From: Paramecium tetraurelia
Taxonomy: Eukaryota; Ciliophora; Oligohymenophorea; Peniculida; Parameciidae
Reading direction: 5' to 3'
Assembly: GCF_000165425.1 (NCBI RefSeq)
Contig: NW_001799422.1
Span: 391,828-455,827 of the forward strand
Length of the DNA: 64,000 bases
Numbering within the stretch: position 1 is the stretch's first letter; every line of letters begins with the position of its first letter. Below the pieces are notes generated by a model that made no database searches, was not told the origin of the DNA, and was given only the letters and a program-made list of their open reading frames with translations. Below are positions 3,032 through 64,000 of the stretch, piece after piece. The translations under genes and the position numbers were made by a program.

Positions 3032-3155
3032 TAATTAATATTAATCAACTTATCTATAAATTTAAAGGTTTAAAAATTGAAGGTTCAATCAAATATGTGA
3101 ATTTTTAGCTTTCCAAAAACATATTTTTATAAATTGTTAATTGCCAATTACTAAA

Positions 3156-5328: not shown

Positions 5329-5371
5329 TTATTTTAATATTATAAATTGAAATTATTTGTTTTTAGATTGA

Positions 5372-5977: not shown

Positions 5978-6051
5978 GGTTATTTAGCGAATTAACAATT
6001 GGATATATCGAATTGATAATAACCATTATTATTTTTTATTTGATTAATAAA

Positions 6052-19260: not shown

Positions 19261-22200
19261 TCAATATCTTAATGATAAGAAGGCCGCTGCACCTGCTCTA
19301 ATCCACACATCTTCATCATCTCTCGATGGCAATTCAAGTGGCATAACAAAATTAGTAGAATGTCCTGTTGTTGAGAGTGTACCAGCCTAGGATTATTACA
19401 AATCCTTACCCTTGAAACCACTTTATACAATGGACACTGGTATTTGTAAATCTTCTTTTCCTTCGGATCTTTGGGTTGCACTTCAACCTGTGATGGATCA
19501 TACGGTAGCAAGTGCATTAAAGGTAAATCTGAATATAATTCCTTAACTTTAGGTTATGCTATCAAATGCCTCTTGAAATCCCATCTAATTAATTTAATAT
19601 TATATTATTACTTAGTTCCCTCAAGAAAGATTCCATAAATATAGACTCCATCTTCTGGTTTCTCAGTTACACCTGTGTGAGTAAGGGTATCCAACACTAT
19701 ATACTCATATTATAATTTATCAATGGCAATGACATGTTTTCTGGCGTAGTTTTGTACCATACCAGTAATGAAAGCCTAAGGGAAGAAGAAACCAGAAATC
19801 CAGAAAACCTTAGGTGTTCCTTTATCTACCCAATGTTTAAGAAAGGCGATTCTATCTAGTAAATCTTGAGTCCAGGAAGCCAAGGGTTTCAAACTTAGAA
19901 ATCCTTTCTCTGCCCATAATTGAGGCACTTAATTATCATAAAGACTGTTTGACAATTTCTCCATTTCCTCTGACATCACAATTAGCCCTTTAAGCGCTTT
20001 TTTAACATTAGAGAGTGTAGTTTTCATAATGGCAAGCAACCTATTATAACGTATAAGTTCTTGAACTAGAACAGTATTCATGGATTCTTGATAATCAGTA
20101 GGATATCTGTTTGAAATCTCATCGATATCAAATAGATCAGGAGTCTTAGATTCAACGAAATTGGCTAATTCTTCAATAACATCTTCTCTGCATTTCCCTG
20201 CTCCTTATTGTGTCCTTGGTTGAATAGATTATAAAGTTTCTAAGAGAATTCTAGTTTCGTTTTAAGCATTGGTTATTTCAGCATTGCTATGTAATCCAAA
20301 TGCTTCAGGTTCAGGATTCAATGGTAATTTTTCAATATACTCTATATAATTCAATCTTTCACCTACATTAGGTTGGTAATAAGTAGGAACTAAAAATTGA
20401 TAGCCTTCTTTTAATGCTTCTTGGGAAATGTACAATTTCAGAATGGTTTTAATTAATCTAACATCCTTATCATCAGTAACTCTACCACCATAATTAATTT
20501 CTGCTCCAAGATAATTGATAACTTTGAATGGTATGAGTACATAATCATCTAATAAACTTTTTAATTGTCTTCTACATACAGTGAGATCTTCATTCGTGAA
20601 TTCATAAGGAATGTTCCATCCAATGGCTCCGAATTTTCTCCTTTCCTAAATGATTGCATGGAATAAAGAGAAGCCAAATAATAATTTCTTGAATTCCTCA
20701 GGTTTCTTACAATCACTTAATGTTTTATCATCTAATTAGGTGTAAGTTCTGAGCATATTATTTCTAAGACCTTTTGGTGGTTCAAGTGTCATTTTAACAC
20801 CATTCTATAATACAATTGTTGGGAATGATTTTGAAGGCATAGATGTTAACCATAATCTAAAATCTTTTGTGCCTTAATCTTACATTTCTTCATTAAGCTT
20901 TTCAAGATCATTCATCCAAGATGTTGCTAAATGACAATTCATTAACAATGCCCATCCACCTCTGCCTAAAGCATCTTTAACTAATTTTTCAGCCTTTGGA
21001 CCTTATCCTTAACCCAAAGAAATAGAATCAATTCTCTTAGTCATACTCATTTCCTCTGCAAATTTCATTAGATCTGCAATAGGATCAGAACCAGGAGATA
21101 ATACAAATATGAGTGGAGTATTAGGAGTGGAATCTTTGTAGCATTTACTCAAATCAAATGTAGGTGGGATGATGAATTTCTCATCCATCTTCTCTATAAT
21201 CCATTTTTGAATTGCTGGAATCACTTTATCACTTCGAATTGCTTTTAATAACAATATTCTTGAAAATGAATCTAATTTCTCATTCCAAGGTTCTGGGAAT
21301 TCAATATCTTGAGGATTGGGAGCATCAAAAATAGTTTTAAATTTATCAGAATTACTCATGAAATCAGATAGAATGCCATCAAAATTGATCAATTCAGACA
21401 TGCCATAGATGTTTCTATAAGTCTCTGGCCATGTATTCTCACTAATCCATTCAGTTGGATTTGGTGGTAATTGAACATCTCCTGTAGCACCTTATAATAA
21501 GTATCTCCATTCTCCTTCATTCATTTTATGAGCAGCACTCAGTATTTTATATGTCAACATAAATGAAAATAGAAGTTTGTGTTTTTCAAATAATGATCTA
21601 CAAACATTTTCATATAACATGTAAGTAAAGAAGTTATTGAGATGAACCAATCTCTCTTCCAAAACCTATGATGCAGGTGCATTCTAAACACCTAAAGTGA
21701 ACAAGTTGATGAACCATTATAAAGAGTATTAATACATAGGATCAATTGTGGATAAATCTATAATACAGAAGAAAAGTAATGAAGCTCTGAATGCAACTGA
21801 TCTATATGATTCTCTAGCTTCATCTATTTGGGCTTCGGTTATTTTGGAATCCTTAACTCTTTGATTAATTTCAGCAGCAAACTTCTTTGAATTTTATAAT
21901 TTATTGATGAGAGTCTCATCCATCAATATTTCTGAAATGTCTCCCTTGGTTTCAGACAAACTTCTTAAAATACTATCTTCTATGTTAACTAATTCTTTCT
22001 TATCTTATGCATTCTTTCTAACTATTTCAGTCTTTTTATTTTCTAAATTAGGATTCTCCAATGCCACTATCTATGCCAACATCTGTTCTTCTAATCCTAG
22101 TGGAGTAATTGCAAAATTAATAATGGTTACTTTAACTGAAGTTTCAGGAGAATAATGAGGATTTGGAAGAGTGGTTGTCATGAAGAATCTGAAACTAAAA

Positions 22201-25200
22201 TTATATTGTAGATTCTTATCTCCAATTTGTATTGTAGCAGATGTTCCAGTCTTACTGATTTATTATAATAGAATAGGTTCCAAAGAGGGATCTAACGATA
22301 ATCCAACATTTTCTACTAAAACCCATTTACCAAATTGAATAGCCAACTCCAAGGTTCTCATCAAATTTTAATCTGATTATTTCAAGACATCCAATCCTTC
22401 TGGTAAGTCTTTACCCATAGTTTTAATATATTTATTAGCTTAAGATTATGGATCAATCATCAAAGTCCATCTTCTACTCTTGTCTATTATGATACCATTT
22501 TCAATTGAAGTGTCATCCTTTGGTAATCCACAAATATTCCATGATTGAATTTTAACTTCATCACCTAAGAATTTCCTCATTGTAATTAAATCAGAAAATG
22601 GAATGTTATATTCCTTTAATTTAGCTCTCCAATCTTATTCCATTCTGATACGATATTATGATATAAATGGTCCAGAGTAAGCAACCATTCCTGCAGCTAT
22701 AATAGAATTACCAGGTATTAAGCCACCACTATTAGTAAGACTTTCAATATCTTTTGCCCATCTCTCCTTTTCATCACTCAAACCTTCAGTCAACTTTTAT
22801 GCTCTTTCCAATTTAACTTCGCACTCTTTAATCTTCTTCTATAAATCTTCTTGTTATTTCTTTTTATCATCGAAAACCCTTTACAATTCTCTTATCTTTG
22901 CATTAATCTCATCCAATTCCTTTTTCTTAATNNNNNNNNNNNNNNNNNNNNNNNNNNNNNNNNNNNNNNNNNNNNNNNNNNNNNNNNNNNNNNNNNNNNN
23001 NNNNNNNNNNNNNNNNNNNNNNNNNNNNNNNNNNNNNNNNNNNNNNNNNNNNNNNNNNNNNNNNNNNNNNNNNNNNNNNNNTACCTCCAATACCAAGCAA
23101 TAAAGCATTTCCACCAGGTTGTCTTAGAATTCTGCTGATTCTTGTTATGTGTTCACAAGCATCCAAGAACATAACTAATTTCATCTATTTCTTTCCGCTT
23201 CCAACATCCTTGTTGTATTGATCTAATAATTCTTCCATCTACCCAACAAAATATTGAAGATCTCCTTATACCTAAACGTATGGCCTTACATCTAAGTCTC
23301 TGTTACCTAGAAAATCACAAAAGATGATTCTCTCCTAATCTAATACTTCTTCCTATTTCAATCCAAAATCAACAAAGAATTGAGTGAGTAGCTATTTGAA
23401 ATAGACTCTATCTTATTCATTAATCAATCTATCATGGAATACTCTCATATTTTCATGATACCATAGTTTAACTAATTGGGCAGGCTCCTAGCAGTTTTTA
23501 GGTAAGATACTGCAAATTCCTTAAAACACTTTGTTTATGTCTCTGAGATTGAAGGTGTAATGACTTTTCGATGGAGTAGGCAAGAGGTCTCTTCTGACTG
23601 AATTATAAATGCTTAACACACTATTAATTAGTTGCATCTACAACATTTGCACAGTTTCACTGAATTTCTTATAGAAAAATTAAATTATTTTTGAAAATAT
23701 TGATTTAATGACATCCTCATCCAATTCCGTGTATGCTAATACATTAAAGTGTCGAACTGCTCTGCCTGTAATATTACTTCTACCACCACCAGGAGGCCCC
23801 ATTGCAGACAAGATGAGCAGCCCTTCTAATTTCACAAATTACAGATCTTATCTATTATACCAACCTTAATGATCTAATATTTATCTGATCAATTCTATAG
23901 GTGGTTAAGCACCATACTCTTCTTTCTTAGGCATGTTTAGATCATCCACGAAAATGACTTATCTCTTTCCGACTGGGGGTCCTCTTACTCCTTTTCTTCT
24001 TTTGTCAATCCAAGAGTCAATCGTATCTTGTGTTTGATTTGCTGATGTCTAAGCACTAAAAGTTAAGGGAACATATTGAAAATCTTCAGGCATGCCCATG
24101 ATCAATAATTGATATGAATTCTATGATTTACCTGTACCTGTTGGTCCTGGGCAACACACATGGAAATTATTAGTAAGTATCAATTTCATCAAATACATAT
24201 TACGAGTGGAATCAGTAGTAGGAATCACAATTTCATGGAATTATAATTTCTAATCAATTTCAAATGACTAATAAGCATCACTCCAAGGTGATAAATTTAT
24301 TTAGTAATCATAAATCAAACCCTCTTTTGGATATTCAAAGTTGGCTCTATATTTTTGCATCTATTATCTATGGAACTTATCGCATTTTTATCTACTTTAG
24401 AAATCTCCTGTTACCATAATACTCCAAACTAATGAATAATGGAAGTAGTATTCAATATTCTGATTCAATTGATCAAGTTCATCAACTGAGACTTTTTTAA
24501 TTTCAGTTTCTACATATGGAGAAATTAAACTGTCAATAATTCTCTATTGCGATTAAACTAAATTGTTTCTCATTGTAGGAATAACTTCTTTACAATGTTT
24601 GTATGTAAATTCCAGTGCCTCATCCACATATTATTGGAACCACTTAGTCAAATTGTTCAACACATCCTTCTTTTTTATTTTTAATATTTGTAGGAAACCT
24701 TTAAACATAGGAATCAATTAATGGTTGTATACCCATTGCTCTAGGCTCCATGTAAACCATACCACATCTTGAGACAGTGGCAGGTGAAGCAACAGCCAAA
24801 TCTTCGACCTCAAACATCATGGTCATGTATTGAGTTAATGTCAAGATCTAACCACTATTCAAACATAACTTCTTGTTGTCATCTAATACAGTATTCATGG
24901 ATTCTATCCACAATGCATCAACAGGTCCATCAAACATTATCCAATGTCTGTCAGAACTTGTGTCTTTCACAGCTTCTCTCACCATATAGGCTAAGACTCC
25001 ATCAGTCCATTCGTGAGTTTATTCATTGAATTGACCATATAATTAACCCATAGTAATTGATTTAGGATTCAATATGTGTGTATGTACTTTATAAAAACCA
25101 TTGGCTTCTCCTAATTTCGTCATTGACTTTGAGAGGATCTAGTAATTGGTTGTCTTACCACCTCCTGTTGGACCCACCAGCATCAGTCCGTGTCTGACTT

Positions 25201-28200
25201 ATATTGTATCATAGAGTTGTAGCACTTTATCAATGAATGGTTGTACAGGTTGAACAGGATAAGGTTATTCCTTGAAAACGTACTTCTCACATTACAATGA
25301 TAATTCTGGAATCAACTTACCATAATCGTATTGTGGTCTTTCTAACCCAGGGAATAAATCCGATATGATGTTTTCAAATAATGGTAAATCGTCTTTCAAA
25401 AATTTTGGAACATTTACATCTCTAAGCGCTCTTAATAATAATTATTCTTCATTCATATCTGGGAATTAAACTTTTAATAGACCTGCTGCATTAATCACAG
25501 ATCTTACTGCTCTCATACCATAATCGTAGTGATCTTGGGATGACAATTATTCTGAACTCAATTTGAATGTAGTAACCATCTTTTTAGAGAGATCTCTACC
25601 TAATTTAAAACCAAATGAATAGAGCATAATTTCACCAATCATAGCATAATCTGGAACCATCATAGCCACTGGTCTAAAGAGTGCCTTCAAATTATCAGGT
25701 AACTCTGTTCTTCCAGCATAACCAGGATTCATTGTAATAAACACTGAAAAAGTAGGTAAGATTTTAATGAATGAACCTTCAAATTCTACTTAAGGTGTTC
25801 CTTTTGCTTTTTCTCCAAATAACACTAGCAATTACTATGCAATAACTGATAACACTTCAATATTGATACGATTGAACTCATCAAAACAGGCCCAAGCACC
25901 AGCAGATGCTAATCCCTTAAAGAACTTGCCAACCATAATAAAATCCATAGAGTCCGAACAATTGAACACCACACATTATTTTGCCAAAGCTTTTCAGCCA
26001 AATCCTTAGTTGATTCAGTTTTTCCAGTACCAGCTGGACCTGCTGGAGCTCCTCCCAAATTTAACCTTAATGCACCCATCAATGTCATATAACATTTATC
26101 AGTCAAGGGTGTAATAACCAATCTGAGTGTATTTCCTAGATATTCATAACCATATGGGAAATTGGTTTATACACACTTTACCCAACAATCAAAATCTACT
26201 AATTGATTTTCCCAATAATATCTTAATTGCGATATCCATTCAAAGGCAAATTTGTCATACACCTCACTCTCCACCATCTTCTATACAACATCTTTGGCAT
26301 GCACATCAATAACAATCAAAGCATTTATTGTAACCATTGCTTGTTTTGATAATTTAGTTCTAACCAAATCAACTAATGACCCAAGCTAATCTTCCAATCT
26401 TTTGAAATATCCTTTAAGATTCTAAGCATCAATAGCTGCTTCTACTTCTTTTGTCCAATGCACTTATGATCCATTCAATACACATTAACCTGGATGTTTC
26501 AAAACCCATTCTTCTCTTTTTACTTGTGTATAATTTTCAATACTAACCATTAATGCTTATCTAACTGATAACCTCATCATATTTTCAACTTCATTCATCC
26601 ATTCTTCAACATTCTTTTTGTTTGGATCCACTATTTTGGCAAAAGGTACTTTCTCCTTTTCAGCTGAAAACATAGCATGAATTTTCTTATCCTTATCAAA
26701 TTCTATTGAGTTGATATTCTCAAACACTTTCTTAAGATGAGGTTAGACTGCTGTTGGTTCTTTTGTCTAAGATAGAATTTCTAATAATTCATCATTTGAT
26801 AAGAAGTAAAATCTTGCAAACTTCTCTCTTTTCTTTTCTAAATAATTGTTCAGTTCTTTTTAAACCATTTCCAATGTCTTATTGGCTTCATGCAATCTTT
26901 CCCATAACCCATCTTCAATGCAAACATCCAAGACCTTCTCCTTAGCCTTGGCTTGTGTCACTGTGGTTCTCCAAGTTTAATCAACCGTTTTAAACTTCTT
27001 GGTTTCTGCTGGCAATTACTTAGCGATGTCTTGAGAATCAAATATGGGTTACAAATACATCCATTATTACTAAAATTTAGCCCATTCTTCTAAAATGTCT
27101 TGAATCTTCCTCAATGACTTATCCCATTCACTGATTCTTTCTTCAAAGAATTTCTTAAATGGTGAGAATACCATAGCAGAAGTATTAATAATGTGTTCAT
27201 CCAAGACTATTTGTATTTCATCGAATCCTTTGAGAATAAATGTGTTTTTGTATTGAACACATTAAAATTTAATATTCTCCCAAGCATTAAGCATATTGTC
27301 AAGCATCATTTCTATTTAGTATTCCTTGTTGGCTGTTTCTCCAATATTAACAACCTTGTCAATCACATCCAAGAATCCATCATTGAGAATTCTCTAAAAA
27401 CAAAATCCCTATTCATCAGGGTTGATGACATGATCAAGACCCTTCAATTAAGACACTTACGTCCAATGTCTTACAGTCATACCTTTCTTCCTAAGAGCTG
27501 ACAATAATGGCACTTTTGGTCTAAATTCATCAATCTCTGCTTTTACAGCTTCAGCAATCTTTTGAATACCTGTTACTTGAATTGTTCTCATGGCAGTCTA
27601 GATATTTTTAACACCTTCCTCAACTATTCTCTCACACTCATCAGCATCAACATTCATAAAATCATCATTCAACCATTATTTAATACCATTCTTAAATTTA
27701 TAAGTGCTTGACCATAAATCATAATAGGGCTTGAATTCCCTAGACATGGAGTTCAATTTGGAATAATCAGTTTGTGGTTTATCAAACAATGCTTCTTGCA
27801 TATTGAATTTGCTAGCCTATTCCTAAAATTCACTGATTTATTTCATCACATATTCAACCACTTCAGCCATATCCTTATTCTTACTCACGTCTTGATGTTT
27901 ATGAAACTCTTGAATAGTTCTCTCCAAATTTTCAATCTGCTCTCTAAAGTCTTCTTATTAAACTTTAGCATCATCAGAGAATTTAACTTTCAATTTCTCC
28001 AATTATCCATTTCTCACTTCAACCATCTCCTTTATTTCCTTTGGACTTCCAAATATCTTCCATCTCCTTTGGAAATCATCCAGTGGAAATCTGTAGTTGA
28101 ATTCCTCCAACATTTTGAACACATCAAATAATTAATTCATTTTGATCTTCATCTTCTCCAACTCCTATGGCAAATTACCAATATATTCCTTTAATAGTGT

Positions 28201-30542
28201 CAACTTTTCTATTGTGTCAGGTTCCTCAAGTATTGTCTTCTTGATATCTCCAAATTCCTGAAATATTCTAATACTAGTATTTCTTGCTCTTCTAGCAATA
28301 AGATCAATTAGATTTTTTTAAAGTCCTTAGTATCTTTCAATAAGAATTCCTTTTGCTTCGTTCAAATGAATTTCAAACATTCCTACATGTATGGAATCTA
28401 GAATTTCTTCGTTTAATTATTTCTCCTTCTAAGTAGCCTTAATGATTTCATCACGAATTGATTCAAATTCTCTTGGAGGATCTTCTAGTTCAATGTCTCT
28501 AGCCACATCATCTGGTCTCAATTTTAAGACTGGGATGTATTTATTAAAAACAGTCTTGTATTACTCCAATGGTTATAAGGCTTCTTCAATTGATGCTTTG
28601 ATACAATAGTAAGTATCCCACACCCATTTATTTTCATCTGCAAACTTCCTAGGTCTTTCATTTGGATCTGGCTCAACAGGTTCTTAGATTGGCATCATAG
28701 GAGCCTTAATGAAAGTTTCTAGTTTTTGAGATTTATGCAAATCAGACAAGATTCTTGGTTCCAAATCTGGTATCTTTGCCATTTCATCTACAGCCTTTTT
28801 CATTGCTTGTAATGATATCAAAACATAGAGAGTTGGATTAGTTGTGTATTAGAAGAAGTCATCCTTTGCTAATAGTTCTATCTAAAATAAAGGTAGTTTT
28901 CTATCATGACTAAATACTTAAACTCTATTGTCTGCCAGAAATCCATCATCGTATTTATTCAACACCCAATCTGTATTTTTAATATCTACATTTACGGGTA
29001 TATTGCTTTTGATTGTCTTTTAATATCTATCGAAATTAGATTTCATGAGTGTTGTGATTGTGTCTTGCATCATCAATCTAATAACTGTTAACATACGCTT
29101 CAATTTACCAAAGTCATAGGTGATTTTTGATGTTTCTTTCATATTGAACCATCCCTTTCCAATTTCAGCAAACCTATCTTTAATAATTTTGATCATAGTA
29201 GGCACCCATGTACCTTTTAATTGATACATCAAGGAAGTGGTTGCATTTTCTTACATGTGTTTGAATTCATCTAAATGTAATGCACCTTCTCTTTTAGAGA
29301 AATCAAACAAACTCTCTTTTAAAACTTAATTGCATTCATGTCTGATATCTTATAAAGCCTTGACAACCTCTTAACTTACATATAAAGTGGAAAATCCAAA
29401 ATTCTTATTTAATTCATCAAAAGTCAGAGGTTTTCTAATGAATGGTTCATCATATTTAAACATCCATTTTTCCATGACTCCCTTGGATGCTTCAAGTTCC
29501 ATCCAACCATAATAACGAACATCTTTCTTTCTCTCTTTTGCAGGTAATCTCAATTTAGGATAGTTTTCATCTTGTTACTCATCATCTAAGTACTTATCGA
29601 ATATGATCTTATTCATAGTTCTCTGAAAATCCATATTAACTTCAAGAAGCAATTAAGTAGTTTCCATAGCTTCTAGTTTCTTGGTCTTTGCATTCTGTTC
29701 AATTCTTTTCTTTTATTCATTGTCTAATTCACTGAGATCAAACAAGGACATGTTATCTATGTAATAGTTGTATCTAACAAGAGCATCAGCAAATATCCTC
29801 TATTAAAATGCATTCTTCAATCTTTTGACATACTTACGTGGATCTTCTGCATCAAAACAAATGTATAATCTATGCAATTCTAATTTAACATCATCTTTCA
29901 ACCATTTGCCAATAAACTTGTCATCCTTGTACTCCAATATTTCCATATATTAGTATTCATCTCCTCTCAATCCTAAACCTAAAAGAGGATGCTTGATTCC
30001 TTCTTCATCCTCTTCTCTCCTTATCCAATCTTCATTACTGTTGTCATCAAATGTGGTATCATCAAAATATTCAAGTTTCAACCACTCTACACTTTAATCC
30101 TTCTATTTAAATTCAATTCCAGCTTCCTGAAGTAATCTATTAAAATCAAGAGATCGAAACTCCTTTCTTTTTCTATCAATAGCCACTTTCCTTGGGACTT
30201 CACCAGGAATGGGATCATATGGTAATATCACCTAAAAATGCCACAAAGTATTTTACTTTCGGTTCTACACTTGTAAACTTGTTCATTTTTTTGTCTTGTC
30301 TTCAACTGATTCCTTGGTACTTGTCGAGATGCTAAATCAGATCGCAATTGTTGTCTACTGGAGCTTGATGTTTGTAACCGTTGCAAGGAGATTGCTTTGG
30401 GAATTGTTTATCGACTTATGGTAGTCATGATTAAGTCAGGTGATGGACCCTGATTGTAATTCTTGACATTGTACTCACTGGGTAAAGTAGGGTCTAAGAC
30501 TTCAGAGAAGACACCTCTTTGCTTTTATGAAATTTATGCCAT
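19261..30542 (-). CDS. axonemal inner-arm dynein heavy chain, DNAH1-like (gapped)
   Basis: The motor heavy chain of a ciliary inner dynein arm. The start is [20 protein letters not shown] at 30542. The tail and linker include [19 protein letters not shown] and [16 protein letters not shown]. The ring follows: AAA1 P-loop [14 protein letters not shown] near 26030 with CFDEFNR, AAA2 P-loop GPTGGGKTT near 25155, AAA3 P-loop near 24140, and AAA4 up to [10 protein letters not shown] at 23082. A run of Ns then breaks the gene. After it come stalk coil CC2, AAA5/AAA6 and the C-terminal domain, ending [15 protein letters not shown] across a 23-nt intron. The N-terminal block ([18 protein letters not shown]) and C-terminus resemble vertebrate DNAH1 more than other classes as I recall them. 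The AAA4 remainder, CC1 and the microtubule-binding tip are missing because of the gap. Confidence 0.93.
22932..23081. other. assembly gap, 150 N
   Basis: Exactly 150 undetermined bases inside the dynein gene. Coding sequence stops at the AAA4 P-loop on one side and resumes in stalk helix CC2 on the other, so the true missing length must be far greater than 150. Confidence 0.99.
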
Positions 30543-48873: not shown

Positions 48874-51800
48874 TCAACCTTTTAGGTTATGATATTTTCT
48901 ACTTACAACTTCAGCCCAAGTCTTTGAAAGATTTTCAACTTTAAAATTTTATTTCAACTCAGATTTAATATTACTACTCTACATTTCATTTACAATCGAT
49001 TATAATTATGTGGCATTCCCTTATTCGGTACAACAATGGATATATATCTGATTTTTTACACGATCCTCTAAGTTTGTAAATAATTTGACTGATTTTTTAG
49101 GGTAAAAACCTGCCCCATCAGTATAAAATAAAATTTCAGTTCTTGATATATTTATGTATATTACCTATCAAATCCATCATTTTAGTGCTCAATAATTAAT
49201 TTATATGCTTCTTAAAATGCATTCTCAAAACTAGTAAGTCCACCAGAAATTGTTATTTTGTTTTCCATTTCAGCCACATTGACTTTTTCACAATTAATAA
49301 CAACTCTAGCTTTGTAATTAAAAATAATCACACTCACTTTAGCATTAAAATTTTTCTCTATTTATCCTATGCAATATAAACAACCAAATTTTGCAGAATT
49401 CCAACGATTTTTGAAATTCATTGACCAAGAATCATCAATCATAAAAATATAATGCATTTTAGGCTATCCACTTAATTCACTTTTTGGCACAAATTTGATA
49501 CTTGGATTTTTTAACATTATTTTTAACTATTCACATACCATTTATCCAGTTCCTTAATTCCATACTTTCATCATCTTTTGTTTAAGAGCTAATTACTGTG
49601 TTTCATCTAACCCTTTAAATATCCAATCGTCATATATTTTTCTTATCTCCTTCCATTTTTTTGCTTCATTTGTTTCTTATGTAACAATTAAACATTCGTC
49701 ATCCATTTCATCGCAAGTGAATAAGGAAGGAATATTTTCTATTAACACTCCATTCATCCCTTTGTAATATTAAATAAAAATACCTCTTAAATAATGACCA
49801 TTAGAACATTTATGTTTGTGGCCGCCATTTGAATAAGGTTAATCACACTTGCGCTTGCACATTGGGCAAGTATGTCGACAGCCTACCATATTTAATTCTA
49901 TAGTTTTTATCTCTTCATAACTAATAAATTTTTCTAAAGTTAAAGTTTCTTCCTTTGCTTTTTAAATATGTAGTCTTATCTACTTTGACAATTCGGAAAC
50001 GAAAGGTTTTAAGAGTTAAATTTATCGTTCTGATTATTAAAACTATGATTTATCAAAAATCTTGACTTCTATCTTTTGATAATTATCAAAGCAAAAGATT
50101 TCCTTCTGCTCTTTCTAAAACTCATATTTACTTTTTATTTATGATTCACCCTGAAGACATTATATGATCAATTCAAAAAGTTCACTTTCATAATCTTCAT
50201 CATTGATCTTATAATTCTCATTAATTACAAAATATTCTTTCGATTTAATTGGGTCTTATACCTCAGTATATGTTTTTAATTTTTATACGTTAACATTAAT
50301 TTTTTCTAAAATTATTTTTAGTTCATTTCTTAATTTAATTTCAAATAGACCTTTGATTTCAACTTCTATTTTGTTCACCTTATTTTTCACATAATTTTCA
50401 ATAAATTTAGTTTAATCTGTTATATATTAGAATATTTATTGATCATTATATTATTTTTCTTATATATCATCTTAATAGTTCTCTAAAATTGTTTTATCTA
50501 GCTCTTATATTAATTGTGTATTAGTAATAGTGTTCTTGTTTTTGATTTCTTTACCAAAATTTGCTTAATTGTCTCTATAAAATTTTTCAATATAATTTTG
50601 ATAAAAATTGGAAATAAGAGTCTTAGCTTTTAATATACTTTGTTCTGTTTTATTTTATTTTATGTCAGCAATAAATTTCTCTAATTAATTTATTTAAGGC
50701 TCTAAAATTTTAAATTACTATCCTAAACTCCTTTGCCTTTTTTATAGCAAGTAAATCTCCAAATTATTAAAATTGAATAATAATAGATACATCTCTCTCC
50801 AGTTCCACTTAAGATTATGCCAAAATTAGCAAAAGATTTATTATAATTGATGATTTCCTACTCAATTTTAGACATAATAATTTTTATCAAACTTGTGTTC
50901 TATTATGAAATCTCTTCACTATCAGAATTGTCTTGCTTATTTTTTTCTTGATGAGATTTTGTCATTTCTGATTTAATTACATCATAAATTGAAAAATACA
51001 TCATTTACCAACTATTTAACTTTTCAAGTTTTGAAAACCAATTCTTTTAGCAATTTTCTTATTACAATTATATTTAATTTTCATTAAACATTGCTGTTGA
51101 AAAATATTTAATAAAACTAAGTTAAAAGTTTTCTTAATAATTAATTTCTTTGATCTATATGTACTTTAAGCTGGCTTCTAATTAATACTATTTTTGAGAA
51201 ACAGGGATTGTTTTTGTCTCTCTGAATACAATGATATGTTCAAAATTTTGGATATATTCCTAAACTTATTTTTCTGTAGATAAGGTAATTTATGTAGTAT
51301 TTAATTTTAAGCCTTTATTAATTTCAATAATAGTTTTCTTATATGTATCCTTTGTATAATCGAAGGAGGCTTATGGTTGTTTTTAGAACTATTTACAAGA
51401 CACTTAAAATGATTTGAAAGCCTTTATCACTGACTCTTAAAAATTATTCCAATTTTTCCAATTTTAGGGATTTTAGAATACTTCTAGTATTTTTTTTTTT
51501 TTTTTATTATCATGATCAATTTTGAAATAGTCCAATAGTGCCAATAATTGTGAAATCTGGTTACTGATCTATTATAAAGTGTTTGGGTCATAGCATTCTT
51601 ATTTCTATTATAATCCTTAAAATTTATCTAATATTTGTATTAAATCTCCAATTAATCCTACTTCTTCTGTATTACAATTAAATTTTTTTCCAGATTTAAC
51701 TGATTTTTAGCTTTTATATTTTTTTCCCTAATATATGTAATCATCCAAAATGTTTTTCTCAACAAAATCTAAGGTGATTACAAATTAGTAATAATTGTTA

Positions 51801-54800
51801 ATATCCATCACATCATATTTTGTCTTAGGTTTTTTCATCCGATCCTCTAAATTTTAATTAAAAATCTCTGCATATCTCATTGTTTCTATTGTATTAAGAA
51901 CTGTTCGAAATTAAATTTAATTTGATAATTCTGTCTCGAAAATTGCATAAATTTTAAATTTTTCATCGAAATCTTATCGAAAAGGTGAATTATTATTAAT
52001 ATTCTCAAGAAACGAGGATACATATTTTTGCTCATTATCTGTAGTTAATTTGTACTCATTGAATGAAGAGGAAATATATTCATATTATTTGGCAGAATAC
52101 TCTCTTAATATTTCTCTTTGTTGTTATTCCGATTCAGTTTTTATACCTCCCCATAATCTTTCAAATTCAGTATTAATTTAATTAAGATTGTCCTTTAGTT
52201 TAGTTAGCTATTCTGGATCCTTACTAACTTAAAGAATAAAGTTGTCAAGCGACTTGAATCCTTTGTTATTTTGATACTCTCTTTCGATATCTTTTATCTA
52301 TTCAAATACTATAACTTCCGAATCTTTTAAGGAGCTATTAATATGCTGGCTTAATCGCTTTTGATATTTAAGATAAATCTTTTTCTAAATTTGTTTATCC
52401 TATTTAAATTAAAGCAATTTTTCATTAAGATCTTTTTCAATATTGAAAAACGTTATTCGAAGCTCCTCATTTTTTTCAGCTTAAATTTGATTAAATAAAT
52501 TCAAATTTTACACAGGACTGCTGAGCACTTTATCTATAATTTCCATTCCAATTTGATTTTTAAAGCTAAATTTGTCATCATCATAAATTTCATCAAGTTT
52601 ATTTTTCATTAATTAATCATGCTTATATGAAATTAATTCAGCAAATTCCAATAAATCAGGTAAATTACAAATAGTTTACCAATTAGTATTTATATTTTAT
52701 ATGAATAAGCTTAAACTTTACATTTTAGATGTTTCAGTTTAAGATTCAAACTTTTGAATAAAACTTTTAATCATCCTTATCCCATAAAGATAAGCTTCTT
52801 CTGAATAAGATTCATTAATTATTAATTATCTCCAATCTTTATTGATACCTAAGCTTTGATTGTTTCTCCATAATTTTTCAATGCATGCAAATCCCAATAT
52901 TTAAATATTGTCTTTTGAAATATTCAAAAATTCATTAGAATCTATTGTTTAATTTTTTCCATCTAACTTATGATTGTGTTCTAAATTTAAGCTATTAGCA
53001 ATTCCCTATATCTATTCTAAAAATGGAGCAAAGTTGTTAGCATCATTATTTTAATTAAAACACCAACTTAATTATTTAATAGAAGAGAGATTAGTTTTCA
53101 TGGACACTAAAGTAAATATGCACATTTCAACTAGATTTTTAAATTGTTGATGTATATCTCCCTTAACATTAATCAAAATTATGTCACTTATGGATAAGAT
53201 TAAAAGTGCAATTTTTTTATCAAATTCAGAATCATCCTTATTTGGACTCTATAATCCCTCTGTGTCAAGTATTAATATATAATCAAATAAATTATTAAAG
53301 TACTCCTTATAAGATATTTTCAATAAATTTAAATAAATACCCTTTGTACATCTGCCAACGCTTGTCCAAAAATGACAGCCAAATATTTTATTTAAAATAG
53401 TTGATTTACCGGAACTTTAAGGTCCTAAAACACTTAATACCAAAACCTTCTCTTTTCCTAAATTTGTGAATTTATTTTTAAGTTAATCCAAAAAATTTTC
53501 ATTTATTTTGAGAGAGTCACCATCTAGAAATTCAAAAGGTTCCCCTTTTTTAATCATTTCATATACTTTTTCTGCTGGATCGATTAATGTGTTTGCAATA
53601 CTTCTTTGTTTAATGGCAATCAGTTCTCTCCAAAATATTTCTATCCCAATGTTTCTGCACCCTATAAATTCTAAATTTTTTTTTAGTTCCTCTTTGAGTT
53701 TTTGCTTTTATTATTTAATTTCTTTACTTTTTTTATCAAAATATATTAGCTTTTCTGTGTCATTCTTAATTTCAGCCTTTTTAAGCTTTATTTGATCTCT
53801 CTCTTTTTTGAGCTTCATTAATTAATCATTTATTTATTAATTTTTTTCCTACAATTCATAAGTGTGTCTATCATTAAATTTTCTAACTTAATCAGTGAAT
53901 TATAAATAAAGAATATAGTATGACCTTTTTTTTAATATATTGCAAAACATCTTTAAAAGTCTTGATAACTCTGAGTTCTTAATTGATTCCTCTAAATTTG
54001 TTATTTATTGTGTTATTTTTTCATTTTCTATATTGTATTGAGATTTATCAACCATGCTTAAGTTTTAATTTGAATTATTTCTTTATTGCATAAGTTCGTT
54101 TTCTCTTACTCTTAATTTCTTTGATTAATATCCTATTGATCTGATTGGAAAGGCTTCTTTCTCATAAAACCCCAAAGGCATTTAAATTAATCTGTTTAGT
54201 TCACTTTCTAAATCTTTTAATATATCCCTATCATCTATGAATTAGGGAGAAATTTTTTTTTCTTCGGTATCAAAATTTTATATAATACTTAAAAAATCTT
54301 AATTAGAAACTAATGACTATTAATCCTTTTAAGCAATCTCATTAAAAATAAATGCTTAAGCATGTTAAATTTCAAGCTCTTTTTATTATTTATCCAAACC
54401 TCTTTAAGCTAAATCCATTATTTTATGAAGTTTTATTCCTTCTTTTTTAATTTGCTCTAAAAGTTTCTGATAATCATTATTAATTTTATTCTCTTCTAAA
54501 TCTCCTTTGTAATTTCTTATTATAAAACATACCTTATGATTATCGATTTATAGAGCATTCTTGATTTTTTGTAACTAGAAATAATTTTCTTTAAGTTCTT
54601 ATTCTGAATCAAATTATATAATCCACAATCGAAACAATGGCAAAATCTTAACCAAAATTTCAATAGGTATTTAGCCATGAGCATCAGCTACAGTAAAGTT
54701 TCTTGACCCATTAAATTATGTATCAAACATAATATCAATAGTATTATTGTTTATTTGGCAGGTATCCTAAGTCTCAAATTTTTCTTATTGATAAAATAAT

Positions 54801-57742
54801 TAATTGATTAATTCTGTTTTGCCAATTTAAGCTTATTTTAAGCTTAATGAAAAATTTATGATAGAAATGGAGGTTTCAAATACATAATAGAGCTTATCAT
54901 TAAATTTGAATAAATCTATTTCTGATTTAGCATTTAAAAAGGATGGATTTTGATAAATAAACGGAATAGGATACATATTTGAGTAGAATTTCAGCAACAT
55001 AACTTTAAGTTCATCATTAGAATTGCTATAAAACAATTAAAACAAGGTTTTCATATTACCGATAATTTGTAAATTGTCTTTTTTTTGGTTTTGGTATGTA
55101 GTTATCATTGACAACAACTTTTTTGATGATTCTCCTCTCTTAATAATATTAAAAAAAAATGGAATTAATGCTTTAAATTTTAATGTATCCTTCATATCAT
55201 CCATCCAATTTGAAACAATTTTCTTCTCTTATTGCGGAGTTGTTTCAGTTAATGAGATGTTGAAATCTTCAAGAGTAAAGCCGCCATCTAAAGGACATTA
55301 ATCAAAGATATTCTGTTGAAGATAATAAGCAGAGTATAAATAGATGCGTTTAAAGAAACCTACTTTACCCAGTTCTTCCTTATAAAACTGTGGATTCTCC
55401 TAAAATAATGAAAAACATTCTTCTTCCAATAATTTGCCAAGGTTTTTGGCGTTTAAAAATACTATTAAGTTATATTTGAAATTATGTTTATCTATCACTT
55501 ATTTTTGCCTAGCACTCCAAATATAGTCGAAATTATAATAAGTCTTATCAAGAAAATGATTTAAGTTAGACAATATAAATTTTGAGATCTATTCATCCTT
55601 TTTAGCCATAATTGTAAAAATAATTATTAATGTTCTTTTAAAAATACTAGGTGTAATTTATTGTTGAATATTTCTTGAGAATAAGAAATTTAATGACTAA
55701 GGTTTTAAACATATGAATAAGGCTCTGAAAGTTTCAATCTTCACATGATATTTTCCTGAGCATTGTGGGACTAATTTTTCAAGAATCTTAATATAAATGT
55801 ATTTTGTTTTGGCATCTGAAATTAAATATTAATTGACTGTTGCAACTAAAAGTATCTTAAATTTATTCTTTCCAAAAAGAATTTTCAGAGAATATAACTC
55901 TTTTTCGTTTAATGAGAACAACTCTTTGATTAATTCTATTGGTAATTATGATGTTTCTTCTAACTTTAATTCTTAATGATTTCCTTCTAGGTTTTAATTT
56001 TCTATAAAAAATTCATTTAGGCACAATACTGCCTTAACAAGCTTGAAAGATTAACTTATCTTATAGAGCTTGATGATGCTTGTTATAAATTTTTTGAATT
56101 TTGGATTCAACAATTCTAATAATAACACAATTTCTCCATATGATAAATTTTATTCTTGATTTATTAATTCCCTTATGTATATATCAATATCATTGCTATT
56201 CTGAAGTATAAATTGTAACTCTAAATCTTTTTTTTTTTTATTAAAAAATTCCCTTTAAGGATTTTAAAACAAAAGCCATATCAAAAATTGCTAATAGTGA
56301 GTTGAGCTTGTATCAAAATTTTAATTAAAAATCTCTTATGAACAATTTGTTGGCAAAACATCTTGCTTTTTCAGAGTGGTTTCATTATTTTAATTCATAT
56401 CAATTTATTCTATTCTTTAGCCATAATTACAATTTTCATTCTTTTGACCTAACTAGATTTTTAGCATTTTCAATTTAAATATCGGCATAAATTTTAAATT
56501 GTTTAATATGCAATATAAATCAGTTTATAAAATTTTTTCAATGTCCTTATCAAAGAATTAATCAATTAATTTGTATTTACCTTTTTGGAAATTTTCATAA
56601 ATAGTTATTTTCTCTTTATCTAGATATTCTTCTTATTAAAATGTAAATTAAATTGAATGATGGGTAAACAAACGGTAAATTTAATCTTAGCTATTGCCTT
56701 TGACTTTAGAAATAAAACTCTTTATGAATCTTTACTTAGATTCAATTTTAGCGAGCGAGTCTTTTTTTAGATTTTATTAAAATTCATTTAATTCATTAGA
56801 TTTGTTATAACAATATTACTGCCAAAAGTAGAAGATTAAGCTGAAGTATAAGCTTTCAAACCCATGATACTTCAGAATATTTTAATCCATTTTTTTCAGA
56901 TTTATTTTTTATTCCCATCTAACGTTCTCGCAATAATGTAACAGTGAAACTTACTTTTTAATATTTTCAATTGCTTTTTCCTTTGTTTGAGTTGTGCATA
57001 ACTTAATAAACATTTTTTAATCAAAGGATAGGGAGGATAATTCCATTGAAAAATCTTAATATTTTTTTCCTTCCAACTAAATAGCAGAAATGATTTTATT
57101 AATCATTTCAGAGTTTGCTGACGAAAATAAATTATTTTCATATTCTAAAAATTACAACACTTATTCTTCTAATAAAGCACCTATAATCATTTCTAATTTT
57201 TTTGTTTCGGATTCATTAAGATCATTATTCCCGTCTATAAACCCAAGCAAAATTTTAAATATGTTTAAATAAGGATATCCCCATTCTTTAATTTTTGTTA
57301 AACAGTTTAGATTCAATAAGTGGAATACTTTTTCTTTAAGTTTTTATAGAATTTCAAAATTTTCTATAATTATTGGGTTGATATTGTTTTAATCACAAAA
57401 TTCTTTTTATCTTAAGTGATTTATTAATTATTACCAGTCTGTATTATGTAGTGTTAGCTATTAATAAATCTTTTTATAATCTATATCCTCTTGGATTTCA
57501 GTTGAAAGATCTTCGGCATTTAAAAATTACAATTGAAGTTTCTTTACATATATTTAGGTTTATTAATTAGTTTAAATGTAAACGAGGGCGGACTTTTAGT
57601 CCTCCTCATTCAATTTTACAAATATTTCTTTAAACATCTCTAAAATCTCAGTTTCATCGGTCCAAATACCGTCGTTTATTTGTTCGCATAAATCTAAAAT
57701 TTGCTCTTGAATTTCTTTATCATTAAATTTGAGTGAATTCAT
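48874..57742 (-). CDS. giant VLIG/GVIN-type GTPase with zinc-binding and vWA domains
   Basis: About 2,900 residues on one TGA-free path from MNSLKFNDKEIQEQIL at 57742 to the TGA at 48874. The N-terminal 1,000 residues are helical. A degenerate nucleotide-binding segment lies near 54600-54840 (QAQIGKTELINQLF, then GSRNFTVADAHGQIP). The main G domain is at about 53050-53550: FEFLDGDSLKINENFL, G1 VLGPQSSGKSTILNKIFG, G2 GRCTKG, G3 LILDTEGLQSPN and INVKGDIHQQFKNLVEMC, the pattern of very large inducible GTPases. A long coiled coil follows. Near 49820-49880 is a Cys/His module (CPMCKRKCDQ...HKHKCSNGH). The C-terminus is a vWA domain with full MIDAS: DDSWSMN, GGLTSFENAF and FYTDGAG. An ATG at 55609 (MAKKDEQISKF) is an alternative start if the first 680 residues belong to another gene. 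Confidence 0.8.
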
Positions 57743-59598: not shown

Positions 59599-62500
59599 AT
59601 GTTCATACTAATCTGTGCTATTTTTTTAATCCTTTAATAGATTAATTGCACATGGGTGAGAATAAGTTCATATGTAACAGCAATCAAGCAATTTAGTAAC
59701 ACAGATACTGATGGGTTCATAAGTCAATTTGGAAATCCAAATATACCTGCTAATTATATGACTTGTTCAGCAGAAGGGAGCTATATAACTTTAAATGCTT
59801 AATCATAATCAGCAACATATATGAACAGTTTCTCTGCAAATTCTTATTCAATGTATTTAATCACATACGACCTCATATTTTTTAACTTGTGGAATAATTT
59901 GGATTTTGTATTGTACAGCATTGGCTCCAATTAGAAATAAATAACTTATAATGAGATCGAATAAGTAAGTGTTTCTAAAGGATTTTGCAATAATTAAGTT
60001 GCAATCATTTAATCTATCAATACTACAATAAATTCTACTACTATTTCTGGTTACCACAAATTTCAGATCAACTCTCTAAGTGCAAGTGTCTCAATAAAAA
60101 ATTTAGTAGTATCTGCCCTATAATGTCATGGAACTTGTAGAATATGTTTCGGAAGCAAATTTAACTAGTGTACTAATTGTTTTCTTTATGGTACTCTTAC
60201 ACCTGAGAATACATGTACATACTCCTGCCCAAGCACAGCTATGTATTATGTTAAAAATTAGGGTTGCAAGCCTACATGCCAAATTAGTTAATAAAAGTAT
60301 GTGAAAGGAGTTTGTGAACCATATCCAAGTATTGATTATTATAACTTAGTTACCAACTTTGTTGGTCTTTATATTTAATAATATAAATCTACAGAACAAT
60401 TTAGATGGCAAATTATTTATGATTTTCAGTAATTAAATACAGCATTACCAGAAAACAGACAATATGATGGTTATTTTATTTATGGATTGTTTAAAAATAA
60501 CCAAGGTCTATATAGAGTTCTAACATTGCCAACAAATCCAGGATCATTTATGATAGCGTTTACTCTTGAACTAGTGCTGTTTAATAAAATGCCACCTTTA
60601 AGTAGTATTCAATTTTTAATAAATGATATTTACTATGGATAGCTATATACCGATGATTAAGGTATTTTGAAAGCGGACAAATTGTTAAGATATTATAACG
60701 AAACCAGATAAAATACTGTGTTTAATGGTATTTCTTATACTGATAATCTGTATAATATTTTATATTTCTATGCCAATATAACAAATACTGTAATTATAAA
60801 AATCATAGGGAACTATTCGTAAATTTATTTAATATTTTAGAGATGCAAATGCTGGTTGGGGATTAAGAAGTTTTTATGTTTATTCTGGTTATTGTCCAAC
60901 CAATTGCTAGAGATGTGATGAAAAATTTAATTGCGCTTAGTGTTAGGGTGGATATTTGAAATCGAAATGGGGGACATGTAGTTTATGTTTAGGTTCTTAT
61001 TAATAAAAAATTAATACCACTCATTGTTAGGAAGACGATGATCAAACAAATTGTAAAGATCATCATTATAACTTAGATTCTAAATACATTATTAAAGAAT
61101 TCATAGGTCTAGAATTAGATCTAGAAGCATACCCATAATATACCCTAATAAGTGTTGTTGGCCAAAACTTTCTTAAGGGATCAGGAATTTATTATTCAAT
61201 TTGGAAATCCTAATATAGAATATTTGGAGGACCTTTTATTTGGGCATAGGCAAAGTTTTAAAGAGTTTTTGCAATAGAAGATCCTCATCATGCTATAACT
61301 ATTTCTTTTATTGTGATTTTCGGCCCTAACTTCCCTGAGGATGGGTCATTTACTTTTGGTTTAGATGGAATTCCTCAAACAGAATTGACATCAAGTAGTT
61401 TAGCGGAAATACCGATTCAACATAAATAATTGCATAATTTCAATAGCATAACAATAGAGTTTGAATGCAAAGGCATAAACAATGAGCCTATTTATGGTTA
61501 TTGTGGATTCTATTAACTTTATGTTACAGTTCATTAATGTAAACCTAATTGCAATTCTTGTTCAAATGATTCAGATTGCTCAGATCCAAATTATATAGAA
61601 TAAATAATTCTATGCTCAGATGACCAATACTTTGATTAATATCAGTAAAAATGTTAAAGTTGTCCTACTACTTGTAACACATGCACTTCTTTTTAAAATT
61701 GTTTAACTTGTGTTGCAACTTTCTCGAATCCAACCTAAGGCTGCATTTGTGCTTCTAATCAATATCTGGAATCTAACATATGTAATAATTGTCCTTAGAA
61801 TTGTAATCAATGCATTAGTTCTTTAAAATGCACAGAATGTGTTCCAAGCTTGTTTAGAATATTAGTGGATAATTAATGCGTTTGCTAGGATAGTTATTTT
61901 GAAGAAAATTAAGGATAAGTATGCCAAAAATGTATCTAGAATTGTCTAAAATGTTCATATTTAAATCAATGTGAGATTTGTTTAGTTGGGTATTAGTTAA
62001 GTAATATTGGAACCTGTGACTAAAATCCGAATACTTATTTTATGGCAACACTTTAAAAATACTTGGATTGTCCAGTTTCATCAACATGCAATCCTTGCTA
62101 AGGAATAAATTTGTCATGTGATTGTGGTGATATGATCATTACAGGGGATGAATTTTGTGATGATGGGAACTCAATTCAATATGATGGATGTTTTGAATGC
62201 AAATTCTAGTGTTAACCTTAATGCACTAAATGTATTGATGGAATCTGTTATGAATGTGCTACATTGGGTTGGTATTTAGATGTTTCTTAGTCAACTTATT
62301 AATGCAAGGAAGTTTGTTGGGATGGATTAGTAGTTGGAAACGAAAAATGTGATGATGCTATATCTACAACCAATTGCAAAGATTGTAAATACTACTGTAG
62401 AACTGATTGCGTAGATTGCGATTATTAGAATGGTAAATGCATTGGATGTAGAGAAGGTCTGATTCCTGAAAATAATTATTGCAGAAATATTTGTGGAGAC

Positions 62501-64000
62501 GGCATTGTTGTATCTGCTATTGATATTTCTTTTAATGAAGAGTGTGATGATGGTAATCTATTTGATTATGACGGATGCAGTAAAATATGCTAATTACAAT
62601 GCTAGAATATATCAATTTGTGATGATTGTCAAAACAACAAATGTTTCCATTGTATTAATAAATATAAACTGAATATTAATTTGCATAGGTGCGAATGCGA
62701 TCAATTTTGCCAATAATGCGATTTAATTAATGGACAAGGATGTGTATTATGTAAACCTGGATTTATTTTAATTGATCGTGAATGTGTAGCAATTTGCGGG
62801 GACTCATTAGTAACACCTGTTGAATAATGCGATGATGGAAATCTCATTTTTGGAGATGGATGCCATTAATGCTACTTTAGTTGTGAAAATCAATGCTTAA
62901 CATGTACAATGGGGTATTGTCTTGTATGTGCTATTGGCTATCAAAACATTGAAGGGAGATGTTAAGAACTATATATTTAAACATCTTCTGTTGTTTAACC
63001 GAAAAATGATATTTATTCAAATGCCCTTTTACAATCATTTTATTAAGACTATTAGTACAATAATTATCTTAACCAAATAAGTTTAGAGGCTTTGGATAAT
63101 AAATCTCTTTAGTAAATACAACAAGATGAAATTGTGTATTTTACTTTTTTATTTGTAAATCTTATATAATCTTCAAATTAATAAATCTTTTTTGATGCTG
63201 ATCTATCAATAATTAATTATTAACGAAATTAAGAAAGTATAATGTATAGCAATTGTTTCATGTTAGATAATAAATGTATGAATCACTGTCTTGAATTTAC
63301 TAAATAGGAGGGCTTAATATTAAAACCATTAGAAATTTGCTAATATGAAAAACTCATAACTATTGAGTATTTGGATGATAGTTTTTAAGTATGCAACGGA
63401 AATGGTTTCGAATGTTTATAGAAATGCCCAATTTATTGTTAAATTTGCTCTCAAGATGCATGCCTTTCTTGTAATGCTGGTTATAATTTGGATATAATTG
63501 GCAACTCTTGTACACCTGTTTGCGGAGATAACCTTATTACTGTTGAAGAATTATGTGATGATGGGAATAATCTTATTTATGATGGTTGCAGCTTATGCTA
63601 ATTTTAATGTTAAGATGAATGTCTTGATTGTTAATATGGTAAATGTAAATAATGTTAAGATACTGTATTTTATGATGTAATAAAGAGTAGATGCTTTGAT
63701 CGGAAAAGTTGTAATGAAAAAGATGGATTATATTATGATGATAAAAATAATTAATGTTTTACTAAATGTGGAGATTCTATCAAAGCAGGAACTGAATAGT
63801 GTGATGATGGAAATGAAATACAATATGATGGTTGCTTTTAATGTTTGGTTTCTTGTGATAAATTCTGCGCTGTGTGTCAATTAAAAGGCTGTGAATAATG
63901 TTAAACTGGATACAAGAAAATTGATTAAGAATGCATTCTTGATTGCGGAGATGGTTTAATTATAGGTAATGAAGAGTGTGATGATGGTAATTCTCTAAAG
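59599..64000 (+). CDS. giant secreted Cys-rich repeat protein (partial, 5' part)
   Basis: 1,460 codons with one 22-nt intron at 60819-60840; the frame runs off the window. A signal peptide is clear (MFILICAIFLILQQINCTW). The N-terminal 500 residues hold two or three beta-rich domains (GYFIYGLFKNNQGLYRVL, GYCGFYQLYVTVHQ) alternating with furin/GF-receptor-like Cys modules (CRICFGSKFNQCTNC, CPTTCNTCTSFQNCLTC). From about 62130 a repeat of about 65-75 residues recurs with the core CGDx...ECDDGN...YDGC...C...C..C, that is the Myxococcus Cys-rich repeat type (CGDG..ECDDGN). At least six copies occur before the window edge. It would lie outside the cell or in the secretory system; a membrane anchor may follow downstream. 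Surface or adhesion function is inferred. Confidence 0.88.

What the first reader, a model, noticed from the sequence alone, without database searches (positions are those of the whole stretch)
48874..57742. VLIG-type giant GTPase fused to a zinc-binding module and a vWA domain in a ciliate
The G domain (GPQSSGKST, GRCTKG, LDTEGLQS, INVKGD) and the preceding EPFEFLDGD-type block match very large inducible GTPases, best known from vertebrate interferon responses. The C-terminus instead carries a Cys/His cluster (CPMCKRKC...HKHKC) and a vWA domain with all MIDAS positions (DxSxS, Thr, Asp). A large GTPase plus a metal-dependent binding domain in one 2,900-residue protist protein suggests a conformational or oligomerising device, perhaps for engulfed microbes, vacuoles or large complexes. 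The role is inference. Similar GTPase-vWA giants may exist in fungi and other protists, so novelty is not proven.
Basis: partly seen in the sequence, partly recalled or inferred. Interest (0 to 1): 0.85.

Follow-up and report, generated by a model that had tools for sequence, protein, structure and literature searches.

The report
Ciliate giant GTPase with vWA tip
This ciliate gene encodes a giant relative of the vertebrate GTPases that coat invading bacteria, here carrying an added metal-dependent grip domain at its end, and it belongs to a family of about fourteen such genes and remnants in the same genome.

Summary
On the minus strand, 57742..48874, code 6, lies a ~2,940-codon gene with a URGCP/VLIG-type G domain (Pfam PF25683, 128 bits, cut-off 55), a Cys/His cluster and a C-terminal vWA with all MIDAS residues. 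Three refinements. (1) The reading frame changes once near 50690, by one base relative to two paralogues or by a short unannotated intron; two further short introns interrupt the end. (2) It is one of 14 related loci in this genome; 8 of 14 carry G, Zn and vWA parts in the same order, one of them with a degenerate G domain, and the pairs compared show purifying selection, so the two ends are one gene. (3) A degenerate P-loop-bearing block upstream suggests tandem GTPase domains, as modelled for human GVIN1 (PMC11974893). One paralogue with a long open frame (C168) has lost its G motifs, another (C69) shows no G domain. Best reading: a GTP-driven, self-assembling coat or remodelling protein whose vWA tip grips a ligand. 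Membership in the VLIG kind is well supported; antimicrobial function is inference. A new variant of a known kind.

The parts
48874..57742 (-). whole gene, about 2,940 codons, genetic code 6
   Evidence: matches paralogues along the whole length
50690..57742 (-). first long frame, 2,351 codons (N-terminal region, LG1-like block, linker, G domain, stalk)
50685..50728 (-). place of the frame change: one base fewer than two paralogues near 50690 (assembly error or lesion), or a short GT-AG intron starting at 50728 or 50718
54293..54955 (-). upstream LG1-like block (residues 930-1150): invariant IGKT.LIN, AD.H and R(N/D) motifs, first P-loop glycine missing; probable degenerate G domain
   Evidence: A1, 8 sequences; weak profile match to the real G domain over 14 columns; weak GTPase hits MMR_HSR1 E 0.012 and Roc E 0.018 in 1 of 8 members
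53633..54175 (-). K/E/Q-rich, probably coiled-coil linker (residues about 1190-1370)
   Evidence: sequence; inference, no coiled-coil program run
53093..53869 (-). URGCP/VLIG-type GTPase domain, Pfam PF25683 match
   Evidence: 128.4 bits, cut-off 55; alignment A3
53399..53425 (-). P-loop GPQSSGKST
49794..49880 (-). Cys/His module C-x3-C-x2-C-x3-C...H-x-H-x-C-x3-H, likely zinc-binding
   Evidence: 7 Cys/His positions invariant in 10 of 10 sequences, the first His of H-x-H in 8 of 10
49760..49783 (-). candidate 24-nt intron (also reads in frame)
   Evidence: GT...AG; in several paralogues the frame changes here
49449..49759 (-). conserved bridge (GMNGVLI..PSL.TC.E....KW..I...Y..W.F...WN..G..C) between Cys/His module and vWA
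   Evidence: A4, 10 sequences
49165..49448 (-). vWA domain, first part, with MIDAS DxSxS and Thr
49142..49164 (-). 23-nt intron
   Evidence: only GT...AG of 15-60 nt found between 49210 and 49120; joins the vWA halves in frame
48874..49141 (-). last exon: rest of vWA with MIDAS Asp (FYTDG), stop

Best explanation
The gene encodes a soluble, giant dynamin-superfamily GTPase of the VLIG/GVIN (URGCP) kind in a Paramecium-like ciliate. Shown: a GTPase domain with intact motifs, a conserved block with a degenerate P-loop upstream of it, a Cys/His module and a vWA with a complete MIDAS, in one conserved gene family. Inferred mechanism: GTP binding makes G domains pair and the long helical arms polymerise into a coat or cage, as reported for GBP1 and proposed for GVIN1; the C-terminal Cys/His-vWA tip, through its bound metal ion, clasps an acidic residue of a partner or adaptor on the coated object, and GTP hydrolysis tightens or recycles the assembly. 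The likeliest object is something intracellular and large, such as a bacterium, symbiont or vacuole. Members without a working G domain (C168, C69) would be regulatory or recognition subunits.
For: PF25683 128 bits over a cut-off of 55; 9 of 17 genome matches over cut-off. Family profile finds Sey1 (6e-13) and GBP1/2/5 structures. The MIDAS D, S, S and T are invariant in the 10 copies aligned, the Asp in those same 10. Seven Cys/His positions invariant in 10 of 10. Order kept in 8 of 14 loci. dN/dS 0.17-0.50 in 6 of 6 comparisons made, dS 0.04 to 1.63. GVIN1 is modelled as N-terminal domain, LG, helical linker, second LG, C-terminal domain, and coats Burkholderia (PMC11974893, passages); the ciliate layout is alike plus vWA. 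No clear transmembrane segment: the highest hydropathy windows are in the G-domain core and the LG1-like block (the last ~285 residues were not scanned).
Against: No expression, localisation or infection data. Both structure models failed (pLDDT 37.6 and 36.1, single sequence), so LG1 and the Cys/His fold are not shown. LG1 as a GTPase fold has only weak support. The window copy has a frame change and may be broken. None of the 10 long neighbouring frames scanned (ubiquitin hydrolase, P-type ATPase, dynein, Ca-binding kinase, DUF4215 protein, three without hits) points to defence. The coat analogy rests on one human family member.
Confidence: 0.4

Rival explanations
1. A housekeeping remodelling machine of the Midasin (Rea1/Mdn1) style: the nucleotide-driven body pulls on a cellular complex held by the C-terminal MIDAS, for instance in assembly or transport of large complexes; no role in defence.
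For: A giant NTPase with a C-terminal MIDAS vWA is the Midasin logic (recalled); MIDAS residues conserved in the 10 copies compared.
Against: The motor is a dynamin-type GTPase, not an AAA ring; a housekeeping machine would not be expected to spread to 14 diverged loci, including dead-G and G-less copies.
Confidence: 0.25
2. A membrane tether or fusion GTPase like RHD3/Sey1/atlastin.
For: RHD3_GTPase 48 bits over cut-off 42; Sey1 is the best solved-structure match of the family profile.
Against: URGCP_GTPase scores far higher (128 against 48); no transmembrane pair by hydropathy.
Confidence: 0.15
3. The window copy is a pseudogene of the family, with a fresh one-base lesion.
For: One base fewer near 50690 than two paralogues; two other family loci are plainly decayed or fragmentary (C225, C175).
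Against: Only one frame change in about 2,940 codons, and low dN/dS on both sides of it (0.28 and 0.35 against the copy at the other end of the contig); an assembly error or a short intron (29 nt at 50728-50700 restores the frame without a stop) fits as well. Odds lowered from 0.30 to 0.25.
Confidence: 0.25
4. The GTPase and the vWA belong to two neighbouring genes.
For: A frame change lies between them in the window copy.
Against: In L013, L016, L017, L018 and L019 one open frame runs from the G domain through the Cys/His module, and the vWA follows directly in a neighbouring frame.
Confidence: 0.03

Closest known systems
VLIG / GVIN (URGCP) giant interferon-inducible GTPases of vertebrates, e.g. 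human GVIN1
   Same: PF25683 G domain over cut-off; giant size; [quoted passage not shown]
   Different: About 2,940 against 1,808 residues; C-terminal vWA with MIDAS; long N-terminal region; dead-G and G-less paralogues; interferon is not known from ciliates (recalled); function untested
Guanylate-binding proteins (GBP1, GBP2, GBP5)
   Same: Dynamin-superfamily G domain detectably related; coat formation is the model
   Different: About five times smaller, no vWA, no Cys/His module (recalled); weak sequence match here (E 9e-5 at best)
RHD3 / Sey1 / atlastin
   Same: Related G domain
   Different: Membrane-anchored and much shorter (recalled); no transmembrane pair here by hydropathy
Midasin (Rea1/Mdn1)
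   Same: Giant NTPase with C-terminal MIDAS vWA; a possible working analogue (recalled)
   Different: AAA+ ring motor, unrelated to this GTPase (recalled)

Membership tests
VLIG/GVIN (URGCP-like) GTPases | URGCP-like GTPase domain over the curated cut-off | tested here: met
   128.4 bits, cut-off 55; 9 of 17 matches in the genome over cut-off
VLIG/GVIN (URGCP-like) GTPases | intact G1, G3 and G4-like motifs in the G domain | tested here: met
   window copy and 7 paralogues aligned; GPQS-GKST, LD-EGLQ-PN and V-K-G invariant in 8 of 8; lost in C168, which was left out of that alignment; C39 was not included because its locus is partly masked
VLIG/GVIN (URGCP-like) GTPases | second large-GTPase-like domain upstream, joined by a helical linker (as modelled for GVIN1) | tested here: inconclusive
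   conserved IGKT/AD.H block at the right place; hhalign E 6e-4 but only 14 columns, probability 28%; weak Pfam GTPase hits below cut-off in 1 of 8 members; no solved-structure match (best E 3.6); model failed
VLIG/GVIN (URGCP-like) GTPases | Cys/His C-terminal motif shared with vertebrate members | not testable with these tools
   no vertebrate VLIG sequence was available; resemblance is recalled only
VLIG/GVIN (URGCP-like) GTPases | induction by immune signals; coat formation | not testable with these tools
   needs expression and imaging
vWA domain proteins with MIDAS | vWA profile over cut-off | tested here: met
   VWA_2 34.5 bits, cut-off 27 (exons joined); PF00092 19.6 bits is under its cut-off of 23.8 and its genome search missed the window copy
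vWA domain proteins with MIDAS | DxSxS, Thr and Asp all present | tested here: met
   D, S, S, T invariant in 10 of 10; Asp in 9 of 9 paralogues with a vWA and in the window
RHD3/Sey1/atlastin | transmembrane hairpin | tested here: not met
   highest 19-residue hydropathy 1.67, in the G-domain core; hydropathy only, last ~285 residues not scanned
Midasin (Rea1) | AAA+ ATPase ring | tested here: not met
   the only AAA model listed is AAA_16 with 12.6 bits against a 32.6 cut-off, over the P-loop region

The most novel reading that the evidence does not exclude
Ciliates keep an expanded cell-autonomous system of giant GTPase coats against intracellular microbes, older than and independent of interferon, in which active, GTPase-dead and GTPase-less members co-assemble and the metal-bound vWA tip is the recognition end; vertebrate GVIN proteins would be a tip-less remnant of this design.
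Probability: 0.15. Interest if true: 0.88.

Novelty: new variant of a known kind. Interest (0 to 1): 0.55.

Why it matters
No biological function had been reported for GVIN proteins before human GVIN1 was described in 2025 as coating cytosolic bacteria (PMC11974893, passages). A multi-copy family in a single-celled, bacteria-eating host that is open to RNAi (recalled) would allow a test of whether the coat function predates interferon immunity. The added MIDAS domain gives a concrete handle: metal-site and P-loop mutants predict separable effects on target binding and assembly. Active, dead and G-less paralogues offer natural controls.

Tried and rejected
Structure prediction of the LG1-like block and of the Cys/His-vWA end from the window alone gave mean pLDDT 37.6 and 36.1 and was not used further; no fold search was run. 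Searching bacterial/archaeal and viral contigs with the G-domain alignment gave 0 confirmed relatives from 51 and 77 pattern matches. The profile of the LG1-like block found only chance hits among solved structures (best E 3.6), and the single C-terminal piece found none up to E 10. A Roc hit in paralogue L018 (22.6 bits, cut-off 27) lies at residues 430-506, away from the LG1-like block, and was treated as chance. Zn_ribbon_2 on the last exon (17.1 bits, cut-off 22.5; 13.8 bits when joined) was rejected.

Intron explanations for the frame change were first dismissed on too short a stretch. A wider scan, 50900-50600, lists 18 GT-AG stretches of 15-120 nt with the right length remainder, 17 of them without a stop. 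The best in size is 29 nt at 50728-50700. It and the 17- and 38-nt ones at 50718 would remove residues that align with both paralogues, so a one-base difference is still preferred, but an intron is not excluded.

Literature: searches for Paramecium with VLIG (0 papers) and VLIG with vWA (0); broader sets, of which only the top rows were seen (20 of 1,965; 25 of 3,998; 12 of 789; 30 of 504); Paramecium with guanylate-binding protein (3 papers). None of the rows seen describes this architecture. A Tetrahymena fusion table lists one guanylate-binding protein fused to a vesicle tether (PMC3143110, passages), a different thing. Only open-licence papers are held, so absence from print is not shown. 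No eukaryote proteome was searchable. Loci L041 and L042 were fetched but not analysed.
Full report
What is there. The window is the last 64 kb of contig C180 of a 69-Mb genome in 231 contigs. Code 6, 29% G+C, very short introns and a GGGTTT/GGGGTT-type telomere at the end of contig C168 indicate a Paramecium-like ciliate (the genus is inference from recalled features). On the minus strand a frame of 2,518 codons overlaps a second of 635. At this strand's TGA frequency the longer frame has a chance probability of about 5e-27. The gene model is: 57742 to about 50690 in one frame; a frame change there; 50690 to 49784; a 24-nt intron; 49759 to 49165; a 23-nt intron; 49141 to 48874.

The frame change. 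Two paralogues, at the other end of the same contig (L013) and on C162 (L024), read through the corresponding place without a break, with conserved residues on both sides, and differ from the window by one base. A scan of 50900-50600 lists 18 GT-AG stretches of 15-120 nt whose removal would shift the frame as needed, 17 without a stop. The one of ordinary size nearest the spot, 29 nt at 50728-50700, would remove residues that still align with both paralogues. The window copy therefore has an assembly error, a young lesion or, less likely, a new short intron.

The G domain. Pfam URGCP_GTPase scores 128.4 bits (cut-off 55) and RHD3_GTPase 48.1 (cut-off 42.4); MMR_HSR1 and Dynamin_N fall below their cut-offs. 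A profile of 8 family G domains finds Sey1 (E 6e-13) and GBP1, 2 and 5 among solved structures. The window protein alone finds three GBP structures and no VLIG structure up to E 1. The first refutation condition, a best match to an unrelated ATPase, is thus not met. GPQS-GKST, LD-EGLQ-PN and V-K-G are invariant in the 8 aligned copies; a ninth, C168, was taken out of that alignment and is discussed below.

An upstream second block. Residues 930-1150 hold a block conserved in 8 copies, with invariant IGKT.LIN, AD.H and an Arg followed by Asn or Asp near the place of a fourth motif. The first P-loop glycine is missing. Profile comparison with the true G domain aligns only 14 columns (E 6e-4, probability 28%), Pfam gives sub-threshold GTPase hits in 1 of 8 members, the window copy, and no solved structure matches. 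Taken with the published GVIN1 model, which has two large-GTPase domains separated by a helical linker (PMC11974893, passages), a degenerate first GTPase domain is likely but not shown. Structure models from the window alone failed.

The C-terminus. The Cys/His pattern occurs once in six frames of the window. Seven Cys/His positions are invariant in 10 of 10 copies, and the first His of H-x-H is kept in 8 of 10. A bridge of about 100 residues follows, then the vWA: VWA_2 34.5 bits with exons joined, cut-off 27; PF00092 19.6, under its cut-off of 23.8. The genome search with PF00092 lists 29 matches, four of them in this family (C180 start, C56, C69, C222) and not the window copy. D, S, S and T of the MIDAS are invariant in 10 of 10; the Asp is present in 9 of 9 paralogues with a vWA and in the window. 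The family vWA profile finds vWA domains of known structure (best E 1e-11; 117 matches at E up to 1, 60 shown).

The family. The C-terminal half finds 13 loci including itself and the G-domain model adds C160:342551, 14 loci in all. G, Cys/His and vWA parts occur in the same order in 8 of 14: window, C180 start, C39, C168 (degenerate G), C160, C13, C14, C222. C39 is partly masked and was dropped from parts by a filter on masked letters, so its P-loop and Cys/His module are taken; its G domain is over cut-off. The other six: C56 and C69 have Cys/His-vWA and no G-domain match in the stretch held; C162 runs off its contig; C160:342k matches from the N-terminal region to the G domain only; C175 and C225 are fragmentary. 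C13 aligns with the window protein over residues 804-2312 (31% identity) and, weakly, 2-436 (20%). dN/dS is 0.17-0.50 in the 6 comparisons made; the 0.50 is a very young pair with few changes, and one pair has dS 1.6, where the estimate is rough. One open frame links G domain and Cys/His module in five copies (L013, L016, L017, L018, L019), so the second refutation condition, separate genes, is very unlikely to be met.

Variation in the family. C168 keeps a 2,508-codon frame in which the P-loop, DTEG and VKGD motifs are all altered, while the domain is still recognised by the family profile (198 bits): a pseudo-GTPase. With PF25683 it scores 45 bits, under the cut-off, in the genome search and is not listed in Pfam scans of the whole frame. 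C69 has an open frame of 1,031 codons with the Cys/His module, and the vWA in the frames that follow, with a CDC20-like WD40 frame about 0.9 kb upstream on the same strand, hence probably a G-less member. C56 has the same parts but its upstream frames are short.

Position. Six of 14 loci lie within 10 kb of a contig end, against 0.67 expected from the lengths of their own contigs (p about 2e-5); with the genome-average contig length p is 2e-4 at 10 kb, 1.5e-3 at 15 kb and 7e-3 at 20 kb (gene limits entered by hand). This was noticed after the fact. Two of the six ends are masked (C180 start, C56), one cuts a gene in half (C162), and no telomere was seen in the stretches looked at, so assembly breaks in repeated genes are as good an explanation as subtelomeric location.

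How it most likely works. The closest studied relative, GVIN1, forms coats on cytosolic Burkholderia and does so rarely on bacteria without O-antigen (PMC11974893, passages; commentary PMC12133148 read whole). I take the ciliate protein to work alike: G-domain pairing and helical arms build an assembly, and the vWA tip adds metal-dependent ligand binding. Shown: domains, their conservation, and constraint. Inferred: GTP use, polymerisation, zinc, MIDAS ligand, target. I give the coat model 0.4, a Midasin-like remodeller 0.25, and a membrane tether 0.15.

Novelty. VLIG-type GTPases outside animals are recalled from databases and are not new in themselves. No row seen in the searches made describes the VLIG-vWA combination in ciliates, but the library holds only open-licence papers, the broad searches showed only their top rows, and no eukaryote proteome could be searched. 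I file it as a new variant of a known kind.

Noticed in passing
L016 (G000:C168:121500-131400), 1247-8770 +: Paralogue with a 2,508-codon open frame whose G motifs are all altered: a pseudo-GTPase member of the family.
   Followed up: partly
L021 (G000:C69:99800-109700), minus strand, locus-oriented 5634-9580: Family member with Cys/His module and vWA but no G-domain match; a CDC20-like frame lies about 0.9 kb upstream.
   Followed up: partly
C180 (both ends), C56, C39, C14, C162: Six of 14 family loci lie within 10 kb of a contig end (p about 2e-5 to 2e-4, post hoc); subtelomeric location or assembly breaks.
   Followed up: partly
C160:296k and C160:342k (L017, L034): Two copies about 45 kb apart, 95% identical over 254 codons: a recent duplication; matches of the second stop after the G domain.
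   Followed up: no
window 60671-64000 +: Protein with 7 DUF4215 repeats, open at the contig end.
   Followed up: no
window 19146-30282 -: Dynein heavy chain gene in several frames (Pfam).
   Followed up: no
G000: C182, C108, C191, C217, C207, C17, C206: Seven weaker matches to PF25683, under cut-off, starting at or near the P-loop: probably other dynamin-superfamily GTPases.
   Followed up: no
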